Source: a virus. From it: a stretch of 31,431 nucleotides of DNA. Position 1 is the stretch's first letter, and every line of letters begins with the position of its first letter. The translations under genes were made by a program, and so were the position numbers. The notes beneath the pieces were generated by a model. That model saw only the letters and a program-made list of their open reading frames with translations, was not told where the DNA came from and ran no database searches. The stretch is from positions 1 to 31,431 of IMG/VR virus record IMGVR_UViG_3300028025_004382; one strand, written 5' to 3'. Shown here one piece after another: positions 2,185-26,546 of the stretch.

Positions 2185-3147
2185 TTATGTTATAATTACT
2201 TCTCCTATTATATTTGCGCCAGGCACGTACATGGCTGTTATTTTTGCGTTACCACTATTGCTTTGAATATAAGGGAATATTCTAGCAAATTGAGCTGTAA
2301 CTAAACTATCATTGTATGGTGTAATATCAATTGTTGAACCAGTTGTAATACCAGAATAAGAATAGGTATATTCGTAATAAGTTGTACCAGTATTATAAGT
2401 CCAACCAGTTGCTGTGATAGTTTCATTTGCTAATTTGATAGCAGAAGCTCCACCGCCACCACCAGATGTGCCTGATGTTCCAGCTGCACCATTAGCTCCA
2501 GATGAACCTGATGAACCACTAACACCAGAAGTTCCAGCAACACCAACTGACTGTGCGATAACAATTAAGTTATGGTTATTACTAAAAGAATATCCACCAT
2601 TAAGATATGTTACACCAAATGCAACATACTCACCTACACTTACTGTAACTCCTGTTACCGTAAACCTTTGATAGTTTTCACTTACATCTCGATCTTGAAT
2701 AATTAAAGTTGAACCAATACCTGTTGAACCTAATATAACTTCAATATCATTGTTATCTTGTGTTACGTGTGATAAATAAACTACGGTTGAATCTGTTTGT
2801 GTTGCATTATTCCATTCTACATTACCATCACTAATTGGTGGTGCTTGACTACCTGTAATTGCATTATAACGATAATATGAAGCACTAAGACCATTTTGTC
2901 CACTGCTACCTGAAACACCACTTGTTCCAGCAGTTCCTGAAATACCAGATGTGCCACTAGTACCAGCTATACCTGAAGTTCCTGATGAACCAGCACCACC
3001 GCCACCACCTTCAGAACTATCAAAAATAGCACCATAACTATCGTTTACGATAAGTTTACGGTCTTCTGTTACCTTTATCTCTACATTACCTACTGTTGTT
3101 GGTAAAGTTTCCCCAGTTGGTGAATATGTTATTAATATCTTACTCAT
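2185..3147 (-). CDS. collagen-like tail fibre protein, 320 aa
   Basis: It has a short N-terminal domain (residues 1-45), a glycine-rich hinge, a Gly-X-Y tract of the GTSG type at about 52-88, a globular beta-rich region at about 89-202, a second Gly-X-Y tract at about 203-234 and a C-terminal beta-rich domain. Collagen-like Gly-X-Y runs form trimeric stalks in phage tail fibres, and the globular parts probably bind the receptor. It ends one base before the BspA-like gene and follows other fibre genes in the same orientation. Its start has TATATTTA seven bases upstream. The stalk is directly visible; the ligand is unknown. Confidence 0.75.
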   Translation of the reverse strand: MSKILITYSPTGETLPTTVGNVEIKVTEDRKLIVNDSYGAIFDSSEGGGGGAGSSGTSGIAGTSGTSGISGTAGTSGVSGSSGQNGLSASYYRYNAITGSQAPPISDGNVEWNNATQTDSTVVYLSHVTQDNNDIEVILGSTGIGSTLIIQDRDVSENYQRFTVTGVTVSVGEYVAFGVTYLNGGYSFSNNHNLIVIAQSVGVAGTSGVSGSSGSSGANGAAGTSGTSGGGGGASAIKLANETITATGWTYNTGTTYYEYTYSYSGITTGSTIDITPYNDSLVTAQFARIFPYIQSNSGNAKITAMYVPGANIIGEVIIT

Positions 3148-4400: not shown

Positions 4401-6419
4401 TTATAGTTTAGTATCACCCATAACATACCATAGGTTTTGAGTTATTTTTAATATTGATGCCACACTATAAATGTTAGCTAAACGTGTACCATTTGGTGCT
4501 CTTAATGTAACACCAGCTTCAGCTCCAATTGTAACATTGCCTGAACCATATCTTGCAATTAATAATTGTGAACCAGTTGGGAATGCAACATTTGAATGTA
4601 ATGGAACTGTAATTGTTGTATCAACACTTGTTGTTGGTTGTGGGTACATTTCAACAATTTTATTTTGATCGGTTAAAGCCAATGTATAGTTAGCATTAAT
4701 TCTATTTCTAGCAACTAATGAAGTATCAATACCTGAAGTACCAGCAGTTCCAGAAATACCACTTGTTCCAGCAGTTCCAGAAGTTCCGCTTATTCCTGAT
4801 GTACCATTTCTACCTGAAGTTCCAGTTGTTCCACTTGTACCAGATACACCACTCGTACCAGATACACCTGAACTACCTGAGACACCAGAAGTTCCTGATG
4901 TTCCAGCTCTACCTGAAGTTCCAGAAGTTCCTGTTATACCACTTGTTCCAGCACTTCCAGATGACCCATTAGCTCCAGGGTTACCAACAACACCATTGAT
5001 ACCTGAAGTACCATTTACACCAGAAGTACCATTTAAACCAGATGTACCACTCGTTCCAACTGTACCAGAACTTCCATTTGTTCCTGATGTACCTGATGAA
5101 CCACTAACACCAGATGTACCGCTAATCCCACTTGTTCCGCTTGTACCATTTAAACCACTTGTTCCGCTTGTTCCAACTGTACCTGATGTTCCAGCACTTC
5201 CACTAGTACCAGATGTTCCAGCAGTTCCACTTGAACCAGAACTACCATTAATTCCGCTGGTTCCAGCTGTACCATTTGTACCTGAAATACCCGATGTACC
5301 GTTTGACCCACTTTGTCCACTAGTTCCTGATGTACCAGATACACCATTTGTACCACTATCACCACTACTTCCAGCTGAACCAGAAGAACCACTTTGTCCT
5401 GAAGTACCAGATGTACCACTAATAACACTCTCACCAATTGAAACAGTTAACCAGTCAACAATATCTGTTGGAGCCAATGCAGCGCTAACAACAATTCTAA
5501 ATTGGTTATATGCTTTATTTGTATAATGTAATAATACATTTGTTGCTGAATCTGAAACGTAATTTAAAGTTATAGCATAGTTTGCATCACCATAAGGTAC
5601 AGTAAAATAAACATCATAATAATAATATGATGAATTATATGTAAAACCAGAGAATGCCAACATACCAACTTTGGTATTTAAACTTAAACCATCAGCACCA
5701 TCATTACCATTTGCACCACTAGTTCCAGCACTACCATTTCTACCACTTGTTCCAGCTGAACCATTTACACCAGAACTACCATTTGTCCCTGATGTTCCAT
5801 TAATTCCTGAAGTACCAGCTGTACCAGCTGTTCCACTTGTACCAGATGTTCCGTCAATACCTGGGTCGCCATCAATACCATTTACACCACTAGTTCCACT
5901 TGTACCAACCGTACCAGAAGTTCCAGAGGTTCCAGATGTACCTGTTGTACCGCTTGTTCCCGATTCACCACTTGTTCCAGCTGTGCCAGAACTTCCTGAT
6001 GTACCAGATGTACCAGATGTTCCACTGATACCACTTGTTCCAGAAGTACCAGGTACACCATATGGATTTGTGATTACTGTTGTTGTACTTCCCGATGTAA
6101 CGATTGTTTGTTGATCGGTGTCCGAATCTATAAATACTTGACTATCTTCAACTACAATTGAGTTAATAAGTAACTGATAATAGTAATACCCATTACCTTG
6201 CGATAGATAAACTTTAGCGTTGGCTAAATCTTCATTTTCTTTTATGTTTACAAATGTAATTTCACATATAAAGTAGCCATTTGCTTCTTTTGCAATAGCT
6301 GGAGTTACTATCTTTGGCTGATTTGCAGACGCATGCGTTAAAACAATTCTAACACTATCCGTATTTGCAAGGGTATAATAAAATACCAATTTATTATTTG
6401 TATAGTTTATTAGCTTCAT
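4401..6419 (-). CDS. large collagen-like tail fibre, 672 aa
   Basis: Four or five parts can be read. Residues 1-118 form a beta-rich N-terminal domain that resembles baseplate-attachment domains of upper-baseplate fibres. Residues 121-246 are a Gly-X-Y stalk dominated by GTS triplets. Residues 248-333 form a globular domain similar to the C-terminal domain of the 181-residue protein at 13426-13971. Residues 334-564 are a second, longer Gly-X-Y stalk, and 565-672 form a C-terminal head. The likely product is a long trimeric tail fibre. It is the first gene after the terminator at 6470-6506 and a candidate promoter at 6439-6468, so it heads the fibre/portal/lysis unit. The long proline-rich frames on the opposite strand are mirror images of the glycine repeats. 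Confidence 0.8.
4728..5420 (-). repeat. tandem Gly-X-Y coding repeat, long tract
   Basis: About 77 consecutive Gly-X-Y triplets are encoded by degenerate 9-base units, mostly Gly-Thr-Ser and Gly-Ser-Ser. The codons vary between units, so the DNA is an imperfect repeat, which should limit but not prevent slippage and recombination with the shorter tract and with the tracts in the 320-residue fibre. Confidence 0.9.
5682..6059 (-). repeat. tandem Gly-X-Y coding repeat, short tract
   Basis: About 42 Gly-X-Y triplets form the N-terminal stalk of the large fibre. This tract includes several charged triplets ([16 protein letters not shown]) that the long tract lacks, a composition nearer to bacterial collagen. 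Confidence 0.9.
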
Positions 6420-8695: not shown

Positions 8696-10042
8696 TTAAT
8701 TTGCATTTCTCAAAATTTCTTTTAATAGCTCCTCAATCTCTTCAGCAGTTAAACTAAATGCAACACCTACTCTTGGTAATTGTCTGATTACAACCCTGTT
8801 GTTATCATAAAATCTGATAAGACCAAGTTCTCTAACTTTGTTCACTTTAGCATTATTAGAACCAGTCGCATACACCCTTGATTCAGGAATACCTAATTGA
8901 TTTGCAACAGCTAACATACCAGATTTATCACTTCTAGCGCTTACTATAAAAATCGTTGAGTTATCTCTAATGTCTTTTCTAACCATTTCTTTACCAGCAC
9001 GAGTTGTTAAAACATTATCATAGTCATACCCGATCTTCTCACCAATTCTTAGTTTTTGAATTTCATCCAATTTACTTTGAGCCCAAGCAATTCCTTCATC
9101 ACCACCCCAGGCATCCCACATAAGTTTGCCACAACCTTCACCATAAGGTGTTGTTGAGTTTTGTCTATGACGTTCAAATGAAGCCATTCTAGCAATTGTT
9201 TCTTCACTTATTGGTTCACGTTTTGCCAATTGATTTGCACGTTGTTTACCAACAGCTGTTCCACAAGAACCCCAACCATTTTCTTCAGCATAATTTAAAG
9301 CACGTTGTGCGTTATCAGATGCAGTTTGTGGGTAGTCAGAATAGCTTTCAGCCAATTCAACATCAGAACCTTTAAATTTGGTATAACAAATGGCAGCAGC
9401 TTGTTCAGTATCCATTCCTTCTGTACCAACATGGTATGCAATACATCTGCTAACAAATTCATCTTCGCTTTCACCAGATTTTGGTTCAATTAATTCAGTC
9501 TTATTTAACTCAACTAATTCCTGAGCAAAACCACCTTCAATTGAGAACCCTTTAATTAAACCAGTCTTAACAAATTCATCCCAATATGCTTTGTCTTCAA
9601 CATGAACTGATAACATCCATGTTCCTACAGGGTAATTAAAGCCATATAAGGCACTTTTATCAATTGCGCTATCTTCTATTATCCAAGACTCATTAACTGT
9701 CGCATTTACGTCTAATAATGCGTTATGCTCCAAATTAAAGTTAATCTGATTACCCTTCTTGAAATATCTATCAACAATTTTCTTGATGGTCTCTTTTGAA
9801 AACTTGATATAATATTCTTCTTTGGTTTTATCATTATAACGATAAATTAATTTATCTGGGATTAACGCAGCACCAATTAATAATTGTTGGTCTTCTACTT
9901 GAGCCAATTTAATTTGTTCCTGTTCTGCCAATGCAACCCATTCACCTTCCATTGCTGGTTTAGATACTAATCCTACTGTATCAACACCTAATTCAAAATT
10001 CTCATCAATTGAGATATCGTATATTGGTAATTTATATTCCAT
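8696..10042 (-). CDS. prohead protease (XkdF-like) fused to a HAD-like domain, 448 aa
   Basis: Residues 1-185 resemble the XkdF-type phage serine protease: VSKPAMEGEWVAL near 27-38, a conserved histidine in NLEHN (His106) and serine in GFSIEGGF (Ser167). Its role would be to cleave scaffold and capsid proteins during head maturation. Residues 190-225 (ESEDEFVSRCIAYHV...AAAICYTKF) and 235-330 (YPQTASDNAQRALNYAEENG...WDAWGGDEGIAWAQ) are short modules often attached to such proteins. Residues 337-415 look like a HAD phosphatase core: DYDNVL (Asp340, Asp342), VSAR at 367-370, a lysine near 399 and YDNN at 412. It directly precedes the scaffold gene. The HAD part may be enzymatic or only structural. 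Confidence 0.75.
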   Translation of the reverse strand: MEYKLPIYDISIDENFELGVDTVGLVSKPAMEGEWVALAEQEQIKLAQVEDQQLLIGAALIPDKLIYRYNDKTKEEYYIKFSKETIKKIVDRYFKKGNQINFNLEHNALLDVNATVNESWIIEDSAIDKSALYGFNYPVGTWMLSVHVEDKAYWDEFVKTGLIKGFSIEGGFAQELVELNKTELIEPKSGESEDEFVSRCIAYHVGTEGMDTEQAAAICYTKFKGSDVELAESYSDYPQTASDNAQRALNYAEENGWGSCGTAVGKQRANQLAKREPISEETIARMASFERHRQNSTTPYGEGCGKLMWDAWGGDEGIAWAQSKLDEIQKLRIGEKIGYDYDNVLTTRAGKEMVRKDIRDNSTIFIVSARSDKSGMLAVANQLGIPESRVYATGSNNAKVNKVRELGLIRFYDNNRVVIRQLPRVGVAFSLTAEEIEELLKEILRNAN

Positions 10043-10053
10043 GTTCTTATTTT

Positions 10054-13000
10054 TTAAAACGAGGCTTGTCTTCTAATTCTATTATTTTTAATTATATCTG
10101 ATTGCACATCACTACTTAATATATATGCTTTAGCTAATTGTCCGCTTTGCATACCATTTTGAATTGCTTGAGTAATTGAATTTTGATCAAACATCATTTG
10201 ACCACCAGTAGCCATTCCACCAGTAAAGTTTGGTGTTAATGATTTACCGCCACCAGCCATGTTAATTGCTGATAGTAATGGTGCATACATTGCTGTTGAT
10301 CGTTTATTAATTACAGCTTCACCACCTTCAACTTCAATTCCAGTATTCCCAATTGGGATACCACCTTGAGCATGTGACTTACCAGTTAAAATACCACCCT
10401 GAGCTAATGATTCAACTTGAGCTAACTGTGCGATAGCAGCAGCAACTTGAACAGCACCAGTTACAGCATTAACAGCTGACCAAGGTAAACCAAATGTTAA
10501 TGGAGATGCGGCAATAGAAGCTGAAATAGCCAATGCTGTATTACCAATAATTTGAGCTATCTGAATAGCAAAATCAATTCTAGCTTGTTCTTTCTTTAAT
10601 CTCTTTAACTCAGCAGCTTTTTCTTCTTCTAATTTTTTATCTTCTTCAGCTTGTTTCTTTCTAATCTCAAACTCTCTTAAAGCATACTCATCTTGAATAT
10701 TAGACTTCTCTTCTTGGCTTAATGAATAATCATTAATCTCATTTAACATTGCCTCAGTATTCTGAGATGATAAACTGTCATAATAATCTTCATTTGCTTG
10801 TAACAAATCATCGTAATGTTGAGTTTGTTTCTGAATCTCAAGAGCATATAAATCATCAATAAAAGCACCAGCTTCACCTAATAATTTATTCGTTTCTTCA
10901 ACATATTTTTGAACTACTGCTAATTTTTGAGCTGCTTTTGTTTTTTCAATATCAATTTCAGCAGTAGCAGATTCACTTTTAAGTTTTAATAATTCAGCTT
11001 CTAATTCTTTTACTTTTTGCGGGTCTGATGTTGGGTCAGCTTTAGCTATCGCAATTTTATCTTGAACTAATTTTAGTTGAATGTTTATTTGGTCTCTTGC
11101 TGTTTTCTTATCTAATAAAGTTTTATAGTTATTAAACTTTTCATAGTCAGTACCAAACTCATTTTGTGCTTGTATTAATTCTTTATAATATGCAGTATTA
11201 ATACTTAATCTATCTGAATTGTTTTGAGTTTCTAATGCAGCAATTTTTTCATTAATAGCTATTTCATTTTCATAATTTTTTTGACGCTCATCAGTTAAAT
11301 CTTTATAAAATTTTAATACTCTTGTTACCTCAGCATCAGTAAATTCTTTATTAAAGTTTTCAATAGCAATATTCATTGCTTTCTCATCACCTTCATTAGC
11401 TTTTCTTAACGCTTGGTAAGCATCATATAAAGCCTTTTGCTTTTCAGTTAACTTACTAACTTCAACATCTTTATTCTGTATCTTTTCTAGAATAGCTTTA
11501 GCATCTGATTCAGTAGCTGACTTGATAGCTGTTTGTTCAAGTCTAACTTTTTCAGCATTATCTAACCTAAATACAGCAAGATTAATTTTAGCTAAATCTT
11601 CAGTAATACCGTTAGTTTTCTTAATATCTTCTAATCTATCTTTATTTAAAGATTTCTCAGCTTCTAATAAAGTTTTATAACCATTAATTAATGCTGTTCT
11701 TCTAGATTTTAATATTAACTCATCACCTAATTTGGTTAATGCTTCAGTATCTTTTCTTTGTTGTTCTTGTTCAGCAGCTATGTCACCACCAGCAGCTTTA
11801 ACAGCAATTATTTGTTGTTCTTGAAATGATTTTAATTCTTGTAAACGTTTTTTATTTGATTCAATTAATAAACTCTCTTCTAATTGGTAATCACCTTGAG
11901 TTATATTAGCTAAATCTACATATATTTGTGCTGTTTCTTTTTTATAAGACTCACCAAATTGTTTAAGAGCGTCTTGTCTATTTTTTAGATAAACTTGTTC
12001 TAGCAATTTTAAACTTTCAAAGTTCTCCTTTGCTTTCTTCTTATCTTCTTTATACTGTTGATCTAGTGTAGCTAATCTCTTTTGTAATTCATTATCAATT
12101 AACTCAATTCTACGTCTAGCATCAGTTACAACAGCAGCTTCTCTTTTCTTTCTATTCTCTTCAGCTTTAGCATCAGCAGCTTCTTTAGCTTTTGAAGTTG
12201 CATCAATACCAGCTAAATCTGCATCAATACCTTGTTGAGCTTTAATTATATTAGTATCTAATACACTTTGTCTATCTCTTAAAGCACTAATGCCCCTCAT
12301 TGTTGCATCAAATTGGTCACTATATGTTTTAACTAAATCAGAATTACCTTTAAAACGAGCATTTTCTAAATTAATTATCGTTTCATCTAATGTTTTGTGC
12401 TTCTCCAATAAAGCATTATTAATATTTTGTAATTCTACCTCATCTTTTTTAAGTTGCTTTCTTCTTTCGTATATTTTAGCAGATTGTTGTACATAATCAA
12501 CTTCTTTACCAGTTAATTTATTCGCTTCTGGAAATAACTTAACAAACTCTTTTAAATTTGATGGGTCAAACAATAAATCACCTTTACCAGCTAATTCACT
12601 TATCTTACGAAGTCTTAACTCGTAGTTATCAAATTCACCAGTTACTTGTCTTAAATTATCAGCTAATTCACCAGCAAATTTTTTATTAGTTTCTTCTTGA
12701 GATTTATTAAATTTTTCTTGAGCAGCAGCTGTTCCATTTAATGCTGCTGTTAAGTCATCCCAATATGCTATTAATGTTGGTACCGCTATTAACAATAAAC
12801 CAATACCAGTTCCAGCAATAGCTGCTTTAATTGAACCAAATGCTTTAACAGCAACAGAACCTAATGCTTTAAAACTTTCTTTAGCGTCTATTAATTGTTG
12901 AACACCTTGAGCTAATGCTAAAGCTGATTGAACTTTAAGTAACGCCTTTTGAACATTCTCACTTTCAGTACTAAATAAACCAATAACACCTTGAGCAGCA

Positions 13001-13389
13001 GCAAAACCACCAGCAACACCAGATAATGAACCAATTAAAGAATCACCAGCTGATTTATTTGCAGCAATACCTCTTCTAGAATCTTCTAACGAATCAGCAG
13101 TTGCAGCAACTTTCTCTTGTAATTGTTTATACCTGTCAGTATTCTCTAAACCTTGAGCAGCTAAAGCCTTTAATTCTTTTTCGTTAGCTTTAACTTCAGC
13201 TAATACTTCTTGATATGATTTAACTACATTTTCATTAGCTGTGACTTGTTCATCACCTGCTTCAGTTGCAGCAGCACCAACTTCAGTGTAAGCTGCACCA
13301 GTTGCTTTTAATTGGTCAATAATTACTTGATTAGAGGTAACTACCTTATCACCGTTTTTTAGCGTAAATTCTATTTCTACTTTAGCCAT
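10054..13389 (-). CDS. tail tape measure protein, 1111 aa
   Basis: This is the longest gene. It is mostly charged, coiled-coil alpha helix (about residues 250-950), with hydrophobic segments near 115-140, 191-210 (GTGIGLLLIAVPTLIAYW) and about 950-1000, and a C-terminal stretch with AQGGIPIGNTGIEVEGGEAVI that is typical of tape measure proteins in Bacteroidota phages. It sets tail length and is ejected with the DNA, where its hydrophobic parts may help cross the host membrane. At about 0.15 nm per residue the tail would be roughly 165 nm long. It lies 36 bases after the 181-residue tail gene and 11 bases before the protease. Confidence 0.85.
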   Translation of the reverse strand: MAKVEIEFTLKNGDKVVTSNQVIIDQLKATGAAYTEVGAAATEAGDEQVTANENVVKSYQEVLAEVKANEKELKALAAQGLENTDRYKQLQEKVAATADSLEDSRRGIAANKSAGDSLIGSLSGVAGGFAAAQGVIGLFSTESENVQKALLKVQSALALAQGVQQLIDAKESFKALGSVAVKAFGSIKAAIAGTGIGLLLIAVPTLIAYWDDLTAALNGTAAAQEKFNKSQEETNKKFAGELADNLRQVTGEFDNYELRLRKISELAGKGDLLFDPSNLKEFVKLFPEANKLTGKEVDYVQQSAKIYERRKQLKKDEVELQNINNALLEKHKTLDETIINLENARFKGNSDLVKTYSDQFDATMRGISALRDRQSVLDTNIIKAQQGIDADLAGIDATSKAKEAADAKAEENRKKREAAVVTDARRRIELIDNELQKRLATLDQQYKEDKKKAKENFESLKLLEQVYLKNRQDALKQFGESYKKETAQIYVDLANITQGDYQLEESLLIESNKKRLQELKSFQEQQIIAVKAAGGDIAAEQEQQRKDTEALTKLGDELILKSRRTALINGYKTLLEAEKSLNKDRLEDIKKTNGITEDLAKINLAVFRLDNAEKVRLEQTAIKSATESDAKAILEKIQNKDVEVSKLTEKQKALYDAYQALRKANEGDEKAMNIAIENFNKEFTDAEVTRVLKFYKDLTDERQKNYENEIAINEKIAALETQNNSDRLSINTAYYKELIQAQNEFGTDYEKFNNYKTLLDKKTARDQINIQLKLVQDKIAIAKADPTSDPQKVKELEAELLKLKSESATAEIDIEKTKAAQKLAVVQKYVEETNKLLGEAGAFIDDLYALEIQKQTQHYDDLLQANEDYYDSLSSQNTEAMLNEINDYSLSQEEKSNIQDEYALREFEIRKKQAEEDKKLEEEKAAELKRLKKEQARIDFAIQIAQIIGNTALAISASIAASPLTFGLPWSAVNAVTGAVQVAAAIAQLAQVESLAQGGILTGKSHAQGGIPIGNTGIEVEGGEAVINKRSTAMYAPLLSAINMAGGGKSLTPNFTGGMATGGQMMFDQNSITQAIQNGMQSGQLAKAYILSSDVQSDIIKNNRIRRQASF

Positions 13390-19045: not shown

Positions 19046-19504
19046 TTATACTTTAATTTTAATGTTTTTCATTTCTGAGTTAATTTTCTTTTGAATATCT
19101 TTTTCAACTAATGCCGCCAAGTTTTTCTCATATATTGGCAACTTCTTTTTTATAATATCAGCCACAAAGTTATTCTTCGTTTCAGCTATTTTTAATGGTG
19201 CTGCTTTAGATGCTATATTTGTGGTTAATCTACCTGATCTAGCTGATACTCTTTTAGCGCTTGTCCTATTTACTGATGAAGTTCTTTTCTTACCAGTTTT
19301 TAATAACGCATAATAATCAGCGATATTAATATCTAATAACACTCTATCTTTAAACGCTTTAATACTTGGGTCAACTGACCTTAATAAATTGCCAGTTCTA
19401 ATCCAATTATTTTTTCTGATTTCATCGGTTATTGATTTAGCTAAATCTTTACCTTGTTCATCAACAAAACGTTTTAATATAATATTAGTAGATGTTAAAT
19501 TCAT
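19046..19504 (-). CDS. HK97 gp10-like head-tail / tail completion protein, 152 aa
   Basis: The protein is basic and helical at both ends, with an IRTGNLLRSVDPSIK segment in the first third, a common signature of HK97 gp10-like proteins (helix, then RTGxLxxSI, then beta strands and an ADYYALLKTG turn). This family sits between the head-tail connector and the tail terminator. Its start overlaps the stop of the preceding gene by one base. The middle holds a lysine/arginine/serine-rich insertion (about 72-95) that is not typical. Assignment is by motif and position. Confidence 0.6.
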   Translation of the reverse strand: MNLTSTNIILKRFVDEQGKDLAKSITDEIRKNNWIRTGNLLRSVDPSIKAFKDRVLLDINIADYYALLKTGKKRTSSVNRTSAKRVSARSGRLTTNIASKAAPLKIAETKNNFVADIIKKKLPIYEKNLAALVEKDIQKKINSEMKNIKIKV

Positions 19505-19953
19505 TAGATTGTATTAAATGGTAATTCACATCCTGTATTATTATAAGGGACTCTTATAGTAAAGTTAGTCTGCCATCCAGCTGTCAAATCTGGTAAATTA
19601 TCGACAAATGGTGTAATAATCATCGATGTTTCATCAATAATCCAATCTGAATTGATGTCACCATTGATTAAATAACTAATAATATCCTTGGTAACCTCAA
19701 GCATTTTACTTTGAATAGTTGTTTGCTGCAATAATCTATCATCAACAATATCACATACCAACATGATCATGTTATAATACATTTCATTTGGTCTGATTTC
19801 AGTTGTGTCACAAACAAAGAATACTAATGGGTATCTAATTTCACCATAGTTTAGTGTCTCCAAAACACCAGCATCAGATGAAGCCACATTGATATGAGCT
19901 CCAGCGATTGTTGTTAATCTTTGTATTAACGTTTGGTAAGTAATTTCTGTCAT
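19504..19953 (-). CDS. tail terminator / completion-like protein, 149 aa
   Basis: An alpha/beta protein with an N-terminal helix (TYQTLIQRLTTIAGAHI), a YPLVFFV strand, a central YNMIMLVCDIVDD strand and a long helix (QTTIQSKMLEVTKDIISYL), followed by a beta region with AGWQTNFTIRVPY. This arrangement resembles tail terminator proteins (gpU, gp17-like), which cap the tail tube and join it to the head. It lies between the frameshifted gene and the gp10-like gene, where such a protein is expected. Sequence evidence is moderate and the name rests partly on order. Confidence 0.5.
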   Translation of the reverse strand: MTEITYQTLIQRLTTIAGAHINVASSDAGVLETLNYGEIRYPLVFFVCDTTEIRPNEMYYNMIMLVCDIVDDRLLQQTTIQSKMLEVTKDIISYLINGDINSDWIIDETSMIITPFVDNLPDLTAGWQTNFTIRVPYNNTGCELPFNTI

Positions 19954-19954
19954 T

Positions 19955-20763
19955 TTATTTAAATTTTCTTTCGTTTTCTTTTCTAACTAATTCTAACATT
20001 TTGTTCTTTGATGTGTTATAAGCCAAGAATGTTAACCCTTCTCTTACATTTAATATTATTGCTTCTTTAATTTTCGTAGGGGTCTCGTTAGCCAAATCCA
20101 TAAGCCATATATAATAAGACCAAGACTTGGCAAAATTTGTTTCATGTTCAGACGAAGCGCCTGTACTTCCAAAGAGCGAGTTATACTCCTCATATAAACC
20201 TTGAACCCATTGAGCAAAAAAAAAGATAGACTTGAGAATTGTGTGCATGGTACTTGGTTCATTAAACGCTCTTTATCGTCCAATGTCATATCAAGTTTCG
20301 TTTGTTTAAATTTAAACTTTAATATATTTTTTGGTTCATATACATCAATTAAATTAGCCATTGCTTTAATAATATTAGTATCACCTAACTCTCTTAAATG
20401 TTGAGTATCCATAAATTCACCAATAGTTAATTTATCAAATTTCTTTACCTTAAAAATATACTTATCATATTTGAATACGGTCAATTGTTTGGTATCAATT
20501 TTTGGCGGTACACTTAAAAACTCTAAATTGTTTTTTAATTGCATATATTCAAGATAAGATATCTTTGGAACATCTAATCTATTAATACCTGATATTGATT
20601 CAACAATCCTAGGAAATAATAGCTCATCGCTTACAGTTAAATTACCTTCTTCATCCTGGAACATTTTTACCATATTGGTAAGTTTGATATAAGTTCCGCT
20701 GCTAACCTCATCCCATGAAGTTGGTACATTGTATTTGGTTTTATTAAATTCTATTACTTGCAT
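19955..20763 (-). CDS. putative -1 frameshift product, 269 aa
   Basis: This product reads the 20763 frame to the T9 run (bases 20216-20224 on the plus strand), slips back one base and continues in the frame that stops at 19955. That gives 182 + 87 residues. The downstream part (QWVQGLYEEYNSLFG..., KSWSYYIWLMDLANETP, MLELVRKENERKF) has the balanced charged composition of a real protein, while the unshifted tail does not. The shifted frame ends one base before the next start codon, as elsewhere in this unit. A shared start with two ends is typical of tail assembly chaperones (gpG/gpGT), but the tape measure gene is 6 kb away. A single ORF with one missing T is the alternative. Confidence 0.55.
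20056..20763 (-). CDS. unshifted product of the frameshift gene, 235 aa
   Basis: The zero-frame product shares its first 182 residues with the 269-residue form (MQVIEFNKTKYNVPTSWDEV, ... IDVYEPKNILKFKFKQTKLD). After the slippery run it has a different tail of 53 residues, hydrophobic and basic (LIIYGLWIWLTRPLRKLKKQ at the end). The common part is an alpha/beta protein found near terminase genes in related phages; I do not recognise a specific function. It starts 36 bases after the large terminase gene. The tail beyond the slip site may be only a by-product of normal decoding. Confidence 0.5.
   Translation of the reverse strand: MQVIEFNKTKYNVPTSWDEVSSGTYIKLTNMVKMFQDEEGNLTVSDELLFPRIVESISGINRLDVPKISYLEYMQLKNNLEFLSVPPKIDTKQLTVFKYDKYIFKVKKFDKLTIGEFMDTQHLRELGDTNIIKAMANLIDVYEPKNILKFKFKQTKLDMTLDDKERLMNQVPCTQFSSLSFFLLNGFKVYMRSITRSLEVQALRLNMKQILPSLGLIIYGLWIWLTRPLRKLKKQ
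20216..20226 (-). promoter_or_regulatory. candidate -1 ribosomal frameshift site (T9 run)
   Basis: On the minus strand the codons tct ttt ttt ttg contain a U-UUU-UUU heptamer in the correct phase (X-XXY-YYZ) for a -1 shift. Both tRNAs can re-pair perfectly after slipping. The shift joins the two overlapping frames. Confidence 0.55.
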
Positions 20764-20799: not shown

Positions 20800-22053
20800 C
20801 TATCCAATTCTAAATGCTATCTTTCTTTTTGGGACTGATACGCTGTGGTATTGACTATATAGTTTATTAGCCAATGATAATGCGATAACCGTATCATCAT
20901 GTTTACCTGGCAAAGCTGAATACAGTATTTGCTTGCTCTTTTGACTATAACTAAAGCTGAAATTGGTTAACTCATCATATAATGGTGCGAATAACTTGGT
21001 TGTAGGTATTCTAATAGCCTTCTCTTCAATTGAACGTTGCAATTCATGAATTAGTTCAGGTTTACTTACTGCTGTCGTTTTAAAGCCCTCTATACCCCTA
21101 AATTGATAATACATGTGTTCATACACTGATACACCTTGGTTATTTAATTCTATCAGGGTCTTTCTTGGTTTCCATTTGTTATAGAAGGTTTCCAATTGAG
21201 AATTTAAGTTAGCCATTGACCCAGTCCTTTCTCTGTATACATCAACAACATTACCTTGATCATCCAAACATACTGCAACAGCATAATCGGTAAATAAAGC
21301 CACATCGACCCCAACATAATAGTTTCTGGTTGAGTCATATCTACCCCAGCTATCCAATATCGATATATCACCCACATTATTGAATACGGAACCATTCTCT
21401 GTAAATTGACATAAGTACTCAGCATTGAATATTGCTGCTGGTAATTGTCTTCTAATGGTATCTATCTCAGATTCATCAAATATACCATGCGTATAATCAT
21501 AGGTAAAACATGTTATCGATTCTTCTTGTGGGTTTAAACCATCGTTAAATAAATCATAGAAATCATTTTGGGTTCCTCTTGGTGTTGATGCCAATAGTGT
21601 TTTCTTTCCTCTAACCAATGTTGTTGGTTGTATTACTTTCTGCCAGGCTCCAACTGGATAATATGCAAACTCATCACAGAACAAATAATCAAATGTGTGT
21701 CCACGAATGTTATCTGGGTTCTGAACTGTTAGGAATGTAATCTTGGAACCATTTACCAACTCAATCTTTAATTCTGACTTATTATCTGACTTAACTAATG
21801 GTGTGGATTTTAATGATTCTGAGATATTTGCGTATATTAATTTAACTTGTTTATATGTTAATGAAACAATACCAACGTCAACCTTGTCATTATTTATTGC
21901 TGAATATAATACTAACTGACTGATTAGTAATGATTTACCTATCTGTCTAGATGTGTTTAAAACATGCGTTTTATAATCATCATTTATATATGACGCAGTA
22001 ACCTCACGCTGCCATGGTAATAGGTCAGCACCAACCATTGTAATCTCTGCCAT
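20800..22053 (-). CDS. terL: terminase large subunit, 417 aa
   Basis: This is the DNA-packaging motor. The N-terminal ATPase shows Walker A as TSRQIGKS (34-41), Walker B as LFCDE (124-128) and the coupling motif STPRG (156-160). The C-terminal RNase H-like nuclease has GVDVA (Asp250), IELNN (Glu302) and KHDD (Asp386, Asp387) as metal ligands. It cuts concatemers and pumps DNA into the prohead through the portal. The length is on the short side for the family but all motifs are present. The start shares base 22053 with the small subunit stop. The portal gene is not adjacent but about 8 kb away. Confidence 0.92.
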   Translation of the reverse strand: MAEITMVGADLLPWQREVTASYINDDYKTHVLNTSRQIGKSLLISQLVLYSAINNDKVDVGIVSLTYKQVKLIYANISESLKSTPLVKSDNKSELKIELVNGSKITFLTVQNPDNIRGHTFDYLFCDEFAYYPVGAWQKVIQPTTLVRGKKTLLASTPRGTQNDFYDLFNDGLNPQEESITCFTYDYTHGIFDESEIDTIRRQLPAAIFNAEYLCQFTENGSVFNNVGDISILDSWGRYDSTRNYYVGVDVALFTDYAVAVCLDDQGNVVDVYRERTGSMANLNSQLETFYNKWKPRKTLIELNNQGVSVYEHMYYQFRGIEGFKTTAVSKPELIHELQRSIEEKAIRIPTTKLFAPLYDELTNFSFSYSQKSKQILYSALPGKHDDTVIALSLANKLYSQYHSVSVPKRKIAFRIG

Positions 22054-24258: not shown

Positions 24259-24879
24259 TTAATCTTGTTTAATCGTTCGGAGAAATTCACGAAATTCTTT
24301 AGGATTTTTATATTTATCTAAATTTGCTAATGCAAGTTGATACATTTTATGAGCATCATCTTCATTTTTATAGAATCCAAGTTGTATAATTTTCTTATTA
24401 ATCATAATTTGTGCGTTAAATTTATCATATCTTTTATGCCAACAAACTCCAACATATTGTGAACTACCATCTCTCCTATCTTTGCTTGTGTTATTACGTT
24501 GACTTGTTAGTTGTAAGTTCTCAACACAATTGTTTGATTTATCACCATTGATATGATCAACCACAATATTATGCCCATCTGGTATATGATTTAAAAATGC
24601 AATAGCTACTAACTTATGAATGTTAATACTTTTACTTTTACCATCTTTACTTAATTGAACCAAATGATAACCATTATGAATTGATTGTATTAATATTCTT
24701 TCCTTATTGAATTTAAGGCTCTTTACACGACCTTTATTTGATACTTGATACATTGAGTCATATCCTTCAATATCCTTCCAAATTTCAGTGTTAGAATACA
24801 TTTGGTACTGATAATCGTAGTCATCAATGTTATCTCTTGAGTTAATCTCTTCGAAATAGTAATTTTTAGTTGCGCTCAT
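24259..24879 (-). CDS. HNH homing endonuclease (NUMOD4-HNH-AP2-like), 206 aa
   Basis: Residues 32-70 (EIWKDIEGYDSMYQVSNKGRV) are a NUMOD4 module. Residues 87-130 (IHKLVAIAFLNHIP, VDHINGDKSNNCVENLQLTS) form the HNH nuclease core with His109 and Asn117-type residues. Residues 139-190 (SQYVGVCWHKRYDKFNA, then GFYKNEDDAHKMY) resemble an AP2 DNA-binding domain. This is the layout of free-standing phage homing endonucleases, which cut related genomes lacking the gene. The first 30 residues are unusual and may be a remnant of the gene it entered. It follows the 102-residue gene by 12 bases and is followed by a structured RNA. Confidence 0.85.
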   Translation of the reverse strand: MSATKNYYFEEINSRDNIDDYDYQYQMYSNTEIWKDIEGYDSMYQVSNKGRVKSLKFNKERILIQSIHNGYHLVQLSKDGKSKSINIHKLVAIAFLNHIPDGHNIVVDHINGDKSNNCVENLQLTSQRNNTSKDRRDGSSQYVGVCWHKRYDKFNAQIMINKKIIQLGFYKNEDDAHKMYQLALANLDKYKNPKEFREFLRTIKQD

Positions 24880-25236: not shown

Positions 25237-26001
25237 TTTTGTTAGATAATATTTTAGGTTTTCAGTTGTGTAATAACCATAACCTTCACCACCAATTGGA
25301 ATTACATTAGGGCACTGATTGAATACTTCTAATAATCTTGGCACCTTTAACTGCTCCGCAATTGAGAATGAACTTGATTGATTACCAATGAATAGTTTAC
25401 AACTTGAAATGATTTCAGACATATGCAAAGCATCTTTGACATGTAAACGTTTGATACCTAACATAAAATTCTGGTTGAACTGTGTATACTCATCATCCAA
25501 TCCAACAAATAAGCATTTGCTAGCAATTGGTTCCAAAATTGAATAGTTGATCGTATTATTTCTATACCTTTTTGATAAACTAATAATGATTGAGTCATCA
25601 AGATATTCTAGATGCCTCTCTGGAGTCATTAGAGGGGGTATGGTGAGACTATTATTCAATTCTGGATAGATTGCCCAATGCCACATCCTAATGTCACCAG
25701 AGCTCAAATTTATGCCTATATCACGAAACCAATCAAAATTATAATCAATTTCTTGATTTGTATGCTTTTCAACTTTGTTTATCCACGGTTGATATTCCAA
25801 TAATGGTTTCAAATAGTTATAGGTAACATCATTCATACAAAATGCACCTGATGGATGGTTTGGTACCGTGTTCCTAAGATTGAAGCCTACATAGAAATCA
25901 ATTGGTTTATTATGTAATTGATGTGCTGCGTAAGCACTTGATAATGAGTAGATTAAGTCCCCGTTGTTGCCAGACTGAAGTACTGATATTGTGTTTTTCA
26001 T
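25219..26001 (-). CDS. GT-B glycosyltransferase (GT9/heptosyltransferase-like), 260 aa
   Basis: The N-terminus ISVLQSGNNGDLIYSLSSAYAA resembles the first strand and G-x-GD loop of GT9 (ADP-heptose:LPS heptosyltransferase-like) proteins. Near 205-225 the segment CKLFIGNQSSSFSIAEQL corresponds to the nucleotide-sugar binding loop of the C-terminal Rossmann domain. At 260 residues it is shorter than usual heptosyltransferases (about 330-350). Likely roles are changing host surface polysaccharide to block superinfection, or glycosylating virion protein or DNA. It overlaps the HNH gene upstream by four bases, so it is coupled to a homing element and may have travelled with it. Substrate unknown. 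Confidence 0.5.
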   Translation of the reverse strand: MKNTISVLQSGNNGDLIYSLSSAYAAHQLHNKPIDFYVGFNLRNTVPNHPSGAFCMNDVTYNYLKPLLEYQPWINKVEKHTNQEIDYNFDWFRDIGINLSSGDIRMWHWAIYPELNNSLTIPPLMTPERHLEYLDDSIIISLSKRYRNNTINYSILEPIASKCLFVGLDDEYTQFNQNFMLGIKRLHVKDALHMSEIISSCKLFIGNQSSSFSIAEQLKVPRLLEVFNQCPNVIPIGGEGYGYYTTENLKYYLTKFDLLK

Positions 26002-26546
26002 ATTTTATTTTTTATTAAATTTCTAAATTCATTTTTATTACCATTGAACAAATGCATATTATCAATAGTTATTTCTCTTATTTTTAAAGCTAGTTCTTTA
26101 TCATCAAAATAACCAATGTGAACTTTATTATTATTATTTGAAGCTAATCTAACTTCTACTTTCCATTTAGCCATTCTAGAACTCCATGATATCCCATTAT
26201 TAATTTTATGTGTTGTTGAATTATGTCTAGTAGAAGTTATTTCTAAATTATCAACATTATTATTTAATTGATTATTATCAATATGATTAATACATAAAGT
26301 ACCTCTACCATTTGGTACATGACCTAAAAATGCCATTGCAACAAGTTGATGTACTCTATATCTTTTACCATTACCATTTAAATATAAATTAGTTTTAAGG
26401 TATTTACCACACATTGATAAACTTAATGGTTTAGATTCTTTTGATGTACCATACCTACCATTTTTAAATGTTCTAACATTACCTAAATTTGATACCTGAT
26501 AGAGTCCCTCATATCCAGGTATATCTTTCCATATTTCTTTTTCCAT
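25998..26546 (-). CDS. HNH homing endonuclease (NUMOD4-HNH), 182 aa
   Basis: Residues 4-30 (EIWKDIPGYEGLYQVSNLGNV) are NUMOD4, residues 65-112 (VHQLVAMAFLGHVPNGRGT, INHIDNNQLNNNVDNLEI) are the HNH core, and 118-160 (WSSRMAKWKVEV, HIGYFDDKELALKI) is AP2-like. It has the same architecture as the 206-residue protein at 24259-24879 but differs clearly in sequence, so two independent or long-diverged homing endonucleases flank the glycosyltransferase and the 102-residue gene. It begins one base after the HTH gene ends. Function in spreading this genome segment is inferred from the family. Confidence 0.85.
   Translation of the reverse strand: MEKEIWKDIPGYEGLYQVSNLGNVRTFKNGRYGTSKESKPLSLSMCGKYLKTNLYLNGNGKRYRVHQLVAMAFLGHVPNGRGTLCINHIDNNQLNNNVDNLEITSTRHNSTTHKINNGISWSSRMAKWKVEVRLASNNNNKVHIGYFDDKELALKIREITIDNMHLFNGNKNEFRNLIKNKI

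What the first reader, a model, noticed from the sequence alone, without database searches (positions are those of the whole stretch)
19955..20763. Probable -1 programmed frameshift at a T9 run just after the terminase genes
Two overlapping frames join if the ribosome slips back one base at U-UUU-UUU in codons tct ttt ttt. The shifted 87-residue extension looks like real protein and ends one base before the next start, while the unshifted 53-residue tail looks like an out-of-frame shadow. A shared N-terminus with two ends is the style of tail assembly chaperones, yet this gene is far from the tape measure gene. It may be a displaced chaperone pair or a different protein using the same trick. 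One missing T in a homopolymer is the main alternative.
Basis: partly seen in the sequence, partly recalled or inferred. Interest (0 to 1): 0.72.

Follow-up and report, generated by a model that had tools for sequence, protein, structure and literature searches.

The report
Conserved T9 frame-switch phage gene
A phage assembly gene is split between two reading frames at a run of nine Ts, and 174 related virus sequences keep the same split with nine or ten Ts, so the virus very probably uses slippage at this run on purpose to make a short and a long version of one protein.

Summary
On the minus strand an ORF from 20763 (235 aa) overlaps a -1-frame ORF, and the two join at T9 (20224-20216); the 87-aa extension stops one base before the next ATG. 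It is not a lost T. All 174 relatives fetched have T9 or T10 at the homologous site (71 sequences below 90% identity, window included), among them the isolates Nonlabens phages P12024L/S. None has T7, T8 or an in-frame run. Codon-position variability switches from frame 0 to frame -1 at the run, and Val/Phe codons inside it are invariably GTT/TTT although these codons vary elsewhere in the genes. The fused product aligns end to end with uninterrupted proteins of Flavobacterium, Cellulophaga, Polaribacter and Microcystis phages, where the homologous site has at most T6. So this is a programmed frame switch in a virion-assembly gene of mainly Bacteroidota-type phages, unannotated in the databases used. 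The run is 9-10 in all three codon phases and no stimulatory RNA structure or Shine-Dalgarno-like element is evident, which favours RNA-polymerase slippage over, or besides, ribosomal slippage at U_UUU_UUU. A tail-assembly-chaperone role is plausible but unproven: no profile match, a very weak HK97 chaperone fold match, and distance from the tape-measure gene.

The parts
20056..20763 (-). 0-frame ORF (235 aa): shared N-terminal part plus 53-residue 0-frame tail; the short product
   Evidence: AF2 model of this product pLDDT 85.7
20216..20224 (-). T9 slippage run; in-frame heptamer T_TTT_TTT at 20224..20218, codons TCT TTT TTT TTG
   Evidence: T9/T10 at this site in all relatives of the split form
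19955..20218 (-). -1-frame extension (87 aa plus stop), read after the slip; ends one base before the next ATG
   Evidence: conserved in L002, L095 and the large family
20800..22053 (-). terminase large subunit gene directly upstream (context)
   Evidence: Pfam Terminase_6N and Terminase_6C; PHROG 2
19504..19953 (-). downstream gene (149 aa); a homologous gene follows the frame-switch gene in L002, and a similar-sized gene follows it in the other split phages (context)
19046..19504 (-). second downstream gene (152 aa); the same-position gene in L002 and P12024L matches PHROG 5 (tail completion / Neck1) (context)
   Evidence: the window protein itself has no PHROG match
10054..13389 (-). probable tape measure protein gene (1111 aa), about 6.6 kb downstream of the frame-switch gene (context)
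   Evidence: identification by length and sequence character only, no family match

Best explanation
This is a programmed -1 frame switch in a virion-morphogenesis gene. The gene encodes a long protein (269 aa) whose frame is split at T9. Unslipped expression gives a 235-aa short form. Slippage at T9 gives the long form, which carries the conserved helical C-terminal extension. The most likely slip is by RNA polymerase adding one U to the transcript at the T9 run (about 55-60%); a ribosomal -1 slip at U_UUU_UUU is the main alternative and may contribute. The most likely role is an assembly (chaperone-like) protein of the head-tail or tail pathway that needs a ratio of short and long forms, as lambda gpG/gpGT does. 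Shown by computation: the conserved break, the conserved run, and coding selection before and after it. Inferred: the kind of slippage, its efficiency, the need for both products, and the chaperone role.
For: T9/T10 at the homologous position with a conserved -1 extension in all 175 loci tested: 71 non-redundant, T9 in 63 and T10 in 8. The extension is conserved at low overall identity. Frame-0 third positions are the most variable upstream, frame -1 third positions the most variable after the 0-frame stop. Val is GTT in 54/54 and Phe TTT in 116/116 codons inside the run, against a mixed Val column (GTG 33, GTA 16, GTT 7, GTC 1) and Phe 128 TTT: 52 TTC upstream in the same genes. The fused protein aligns across the slip site with uninterrupted relatives (hhalign probability 98.3, E 2.2e-14, 232 columns), and those uninterrupted genes have no T run above 7. 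For polymerase slippage: run length is 9-10 in three codon phases with compensating flank extension; no downstream structure excess; SD-like 4-mer in only 2 of 71. Literature: slippage on runs of 9 As or Ts (PMC5009743), insertion frequency rising exponentially with run length (PMC5574713), and two required size variants of TssM made by transcriptional slippage on A11 (PMC4256274).
Against: Every sequence also has a perfect in-frame ribosomal heptamer T_TTT_TTT, so the ribosomal route is not excluded. There are only four flank configurations, so the run-length argument rests on few independent events. No mRNA or protein data exist here. Uninterrupted relatives manage without a visible split, so the short form may be a dispensable by-product. 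Chaperone identity is not supported by sequence profiles.
Confidence: 0.6

Rival explanations
1. Classical -1 programmed ribosomal frameshift at U_UUU_UUU, as in lambda G/GT, with the long T run incidental or merely helpful.
For: An in-frame T_TTT_TTT heptamer is present in every phase variant. -1 ribosomal frameshifting is the known mode for tail assembly chaperones (PMC5009743; two genes measured at 6-7% in PMC3711429). Synonymous invariance of GTT TTT TTT is equally expected.
Against: A heptamer needs 7 Ts, yet 7 or 8 were never seen; shortening on one flank is matched by extension on the other. No downstream RNA structure excess and SD-like 4-mers in only 2 of 71, though not all ribosomal sites need them.
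Confidence: 0.36
2. Sequencing or assembly error: one T missing from a single intact ORF.
For: Homopolymers are error-prone; distant relatives have an uninterrupted ORF.
Against: The same break occurs in all 174 other loci from many independent assemblies and in two isolates, P12024L and P12024S.
Confidence: 0.01
3. Phase-variable (contingency) gene or decaying pseudogene switched by replication slippage at the run.
For: A homopolymer in a coding gene is the usual substrate.
Against: No in-frame (ON) length variant in the loci fetched, and purifying codon signatures on both sides of the run.
Confidence: 0.02
4. The extension is a separate cistron with its own start, not joined to the upstream ORF.
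For: In the window the -1 ORF has an ATG at 20248 upstream of the run; in P12024L/S the extension is annotated as a separate gene.
Against: End-to-end homology of the fused product with uninterrupted proteins; slip-site codons are under synonymous constraint. I saw no comparable start codon in most relatives' ORF lists, but did not test this systematically.
Confidence: 0.03

Closest known systems
Lambda gpG/gpGT-type tail assembly chaperones (HK97 gp13 and its frameshifted form, and similar pairs)
   Same: Short product plus a -1-shifted long product with shared N-terminus, slip near the end of the first ORF, in a virion gene cluster.
   Different: Lies directly after the terminase gene, not directly before the tape measure gene; homopolymer T9-10; no sequence-profile match to chaperones tested; distant homologues are single uninterrupted ORFs.
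Bacterial genes using programmed transcriptional slippage (Shigella mxiE and spa13, Citrobacter rodentium tssM, Thermus dnaX)
   Same: A/T run at or above the length known for polymerase slippage at the frame junction, two size variants from one gene, no evident ribosomal stimulators.
   Different: Here in a phage gene, conserved over very divergent viruses; slippage itself not measured.
PHROG 25418 proteins of Duneviridae and other phages (Cellulophaga Ingeline gp05, Flavobacterium laban6-1 gp17, Polaribacter Leef_1 gp02, Microcystis Mea-Yong924-1)
   Same: Homologous to the fused product across the slip site.
   Different: One uninterrupted ORF, at most T6 at the homologous site; function unknown.

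Membership tests
G/GT-type tail assembly chaperone | Two overlapping frames joined by a conserved -1 shift near the end of the first ORF | tested here: met
G/GT-type tail assembly chaperone | X_XXY_YYZ-type slippery heptamer in frame | tested here: met
   T_TTT_TTT in the split sequences
G/GT-type tail assembly chaperone | Gene directly upstream of the tape measure gene | tested here: not met
   About 6.6 kb and several genes between it and the probable tape measure gene; in Cellulophaga Ingeline, whose homologue is unsplit, two genes lie between
G/GT-type tail assembly chaperone | Sequence-profile homology to known chaperones | tested here: inconclusive
   No Pfam or PHROG chaperone match; hhalign against HK97 gp13 probability 0.3; libraries may lack this branch
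G/GT-type tail assembly chaperone | Fold of the N-terminal chaperone domain | tested here: inconclusive
   HK97 tail assembly chaperone 2ob9_B at Z 3.3, rmsd 4.0, 72 residues aligned over model 1-89; too weak to count
G/GT-type tail assembly chaperone | Short form coats the tape measure protein, long form recruits the tail tube protein, ratio critical | not testable with these tools
   Needs genetics and protein interaction assays
Programmed transcriptional slippage gene | Run of 9 or more A/T at the frame junction | tested here: met
   T9 or T10 in all split loci
Programmed transcriptional slippage gene | Run length, not codon phase, is conserved | tested here: met
   Flank extensions (1,1), (1,2), (0,2), (2,0) beyond the heptamer, never a sum below 2; few independent configurations
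Programmed transcriptional slippage gene | mRNA population with extra or missing U at the run | not testable with these tools
   Needs RNA from infected cells
Programmed transcriptional slippage gene | No ribosomal stimulatory signals needed | tested here: inconclusive
   Mean folding z about 0 downstream, SD-like 4-mer in 2 of 71; pseudoknots were not searched

The most novel reading that the evidence does not exclude
A large group of mainly marine, Bacteroidota-type phages has replaced the ribosomal frameshift of a tail-assembly-chaperone-like gene with programmed RNA-polymerase slippage at a conserved T9-10 run, as a way to set the ratio of two virion-assembly proteins, while sister phages encode only the long form.
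Probability: 0.4. Interest if true: 0.75.

Novelty: new variant of a known kind. Interest (0 to 1): 0.62.

Why it matters
It reveals an unannotated recoding event kept in at least 175 collected loci, which PHROGs holds as unrelated unknown families (32199 for the N-terminal part, 38404 for the extension, 25418 for the unsplit form). Gene callers will keep splitting or truncating this protein. If slippage is by RNA polymerase, it would be a conserved phage structural-gene case beside the ribosomal lambda G/GT paradigm. The contrast with unsplit relatives makes it directly testable whether the two-product arrangement is needed for tail assembly.

Tried and rejected
Direct search with the window N-terminus found no relatives in viral contigs, nor did tblastn against phages; relatives came through the neighbouring genes. 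Pfam, PHROG and solved-structure profile searches gave no function. Foldseek PDB: no match at E <= 0.001. Fold search of the extension against viral models: none at E <= 0.001; the best hit, A0A516L611 (258 aa), also matches the N-terminal model. A mixed-fragment alignment misaligned the extensions and was dropped. The genome search relatives are not available for a virus record. Rfam on the window: no match. Considered and rejected: sequencing error, phase variation or decay, separate cistron (see rivals). Flavobacterium phage 6H, a broken copy among intact F. psychrophilum relatives, was first taken as an alternative slip site; its record differs from FPSV-F7 in a block of about 35 bases, so it was not used as evidence.

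Full report
OBSERVATION. On the minus strand of the window a 235-aa ORF starts at 20763 and stops at 20056; a -1-frame ORF overlaps it and stops at 19955, one base before the ATG of the next gene at 19953. The junction codons are CTA TCT TTT TTT TTG, with T9 at 20224..20216 and an in-frame T_TTT_TTT heptamer. A -1 slip gives a 269-aa product with an 87-aa extension; no slip gives a 53-aa tail. This T9 is the only A/T run of nine or more in the window; a dinucleotide model expects about 3.9.

RELATIVES. The gene itself is too divergent for direct search, but the terminase gene led to L002 (58% identity in TerL) and the 631-aa tail gene to L004-L009. Those examined carry a homologue in the same place after TerL, with T9 at the same alignment column and a -1 extension running to, or just into, the next gene. 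Further scans brought the collection to 175 loci including the window. All have T9 or T10 at the site; L139, which the script missed because of an internal deletion, has T10. At under 90% identity 71 sequences remain: 58 T9 in phase 1, 8 T10 in phase 1, 3 T9 in phase 2 (window, L002, L095), 2 T9 in phase 0. The isolates Nonlabens phages P12024L and P12024S have it too, annotated as two hypothetical proteins. This excludes a lost T in one assembly, and the absence of in-frame variants argues against phase variation.

SELECTION. In 58 phase-1 sequences the 0-frame third position is the most variable upstream of the run (mean entropy 1.16 against 0.91 and 0.53), the -1-frame third position is the most variable after the 0-frame stop (1.27 against 0.57 and 0.72), and the overlap is intermediate. 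Within the run the synonymous positions do not vary: Val GTT 54/54 and Phe TTT 116/116, against a mixed Val column (GTG 33, GTA 16, GTT 7, GTC 1) and Phe 128 TTT: 52 TTC upstream in the same genes.

UNSPLIT RELATIVES. Structure search of the AF2 model of the window's short product (pLDDT 85.7) pointed to Flavobacterium phage 6H and uncharacterised viral proteins. Through 6H, homologues were found in F. psychrophilum phages, laban6-1, Cellulophaga Ingeline, Polaribacter Leef_1 and Microcystis phages, where the gene is one uninterrupted ORF of 259-301 aa. A profile of the fused products aligns with these unsplit proteins over 232 columns across the slip site (probability 98.3, E 2.2e-14). At the homologous FF position three of them read TTT TTT flanked by non-T bases, and no T run above 7 occurs in 19 unsplit genes. 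These are distant relatives; every nearer relative fetched is split. The frame split and the long T run therefore go together.

MECHANISM. Relative to the in-frame heptamer, the run extends left/right by (1,1), (1,2), (0,2) or (2,0) bases, never by fewer than two in sum. Ribosomal slippage needs only the seven Ts; polymerase slippage depends on run length (PMC5574713) and is documented on runs of 9 As or Ts (PMC5009743). No downstream folding excess is seen (mean z -0.25 to 0.05 in the three windows starting 3-10 bases after the slip), and SD-like 4-mers occur in 2 of 71. I therefore favour polymerase slippage, at about 55-60%, with ribosomal slippage as a strong rival. The phase configurations are few, so this is not proof. 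Transcriptional slippage giving two TssM size variants, both required, in a type VI secretion system is a close functional precedent (PMC4256274).

FUNCTION. The gene sits between the terminase gene and genes whose relatives match tail completion/Neck1, in a virion-gene cluster. The style resembles lambda G/GT, but chaperone membership is not established: no family match, HK97 gp13 profile comparison negative, HK97 chaperone structure only at Z 3.3 over 72 residues, and the probable tape measure gene lies about 6.6 kb away. The extension is predicted helical (pLDDT 77) with no clear fold match. In PHROGs the pieces are separate unknown families: 32199 (relatives' N-terminal part), 38404 (extension, weak), 25418 (unsplit).

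LITERATURE. Searches of the open-access library found no description of this gene as recoded, nor of transcriptional slippage in a tail assembly chaperone; subscription papers were not searched.

VERDICT. The frame switch is real and conserved. It is a new variant of a known kind (two-product virion-assembly gene by -1 recoding), with an unresolved and interesting mechanism.

Noticed in passing
L177 (Flavobacterium phage 6H, NC_021867) 10352-10927, minus: The 6H copy is interrupted, while FPSV-F7, 23T and relatives have an intact 293-aa ORF; 6H and FPSV-F7 differ in a block of about 35 bases there, so either a real rearrangement or a sequence error in the record.
   Followed up: partly
window 8696-10042, minus: 448-aa protein joins a head-maturation-protease-like domain (PHROGs 24921, 3017) to a second phage domain (PHROG 2859) and a C-terminal stretch that looks HAD-like by eye.
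   Followed up: partly
window 6529-31056, minus: Unusual gene order: portal, terminases, frame-switch gene, tail genes and probable tape measure come before the protease and the probable capsid gene.
   Followed up: no
window 2185-3147 and 4401-6419, minus: Two proteins rich in GTSGTSG-type repeats (collagen-like, probable fibres); 3-2183 is a long repetitive, leucine-rich-repeat-like protein at the contig end.
   Followed up: no
window 24259-24879 and 25998-26546, minus; L002 5751-6236: HNH-endonuclease-like genes (by eye); L002 carries one inserted between the neck-like gene and the tail gene, where the window has none.
   Followed up: no
L090 (contig titled Euryarchaeota archaeon), L091 and L092 (titled Pseudooceanicola sp.): MAG contigs carry members of this phage gene family, so these contigs are probably misbinned phage sequence.
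   Followed up: no
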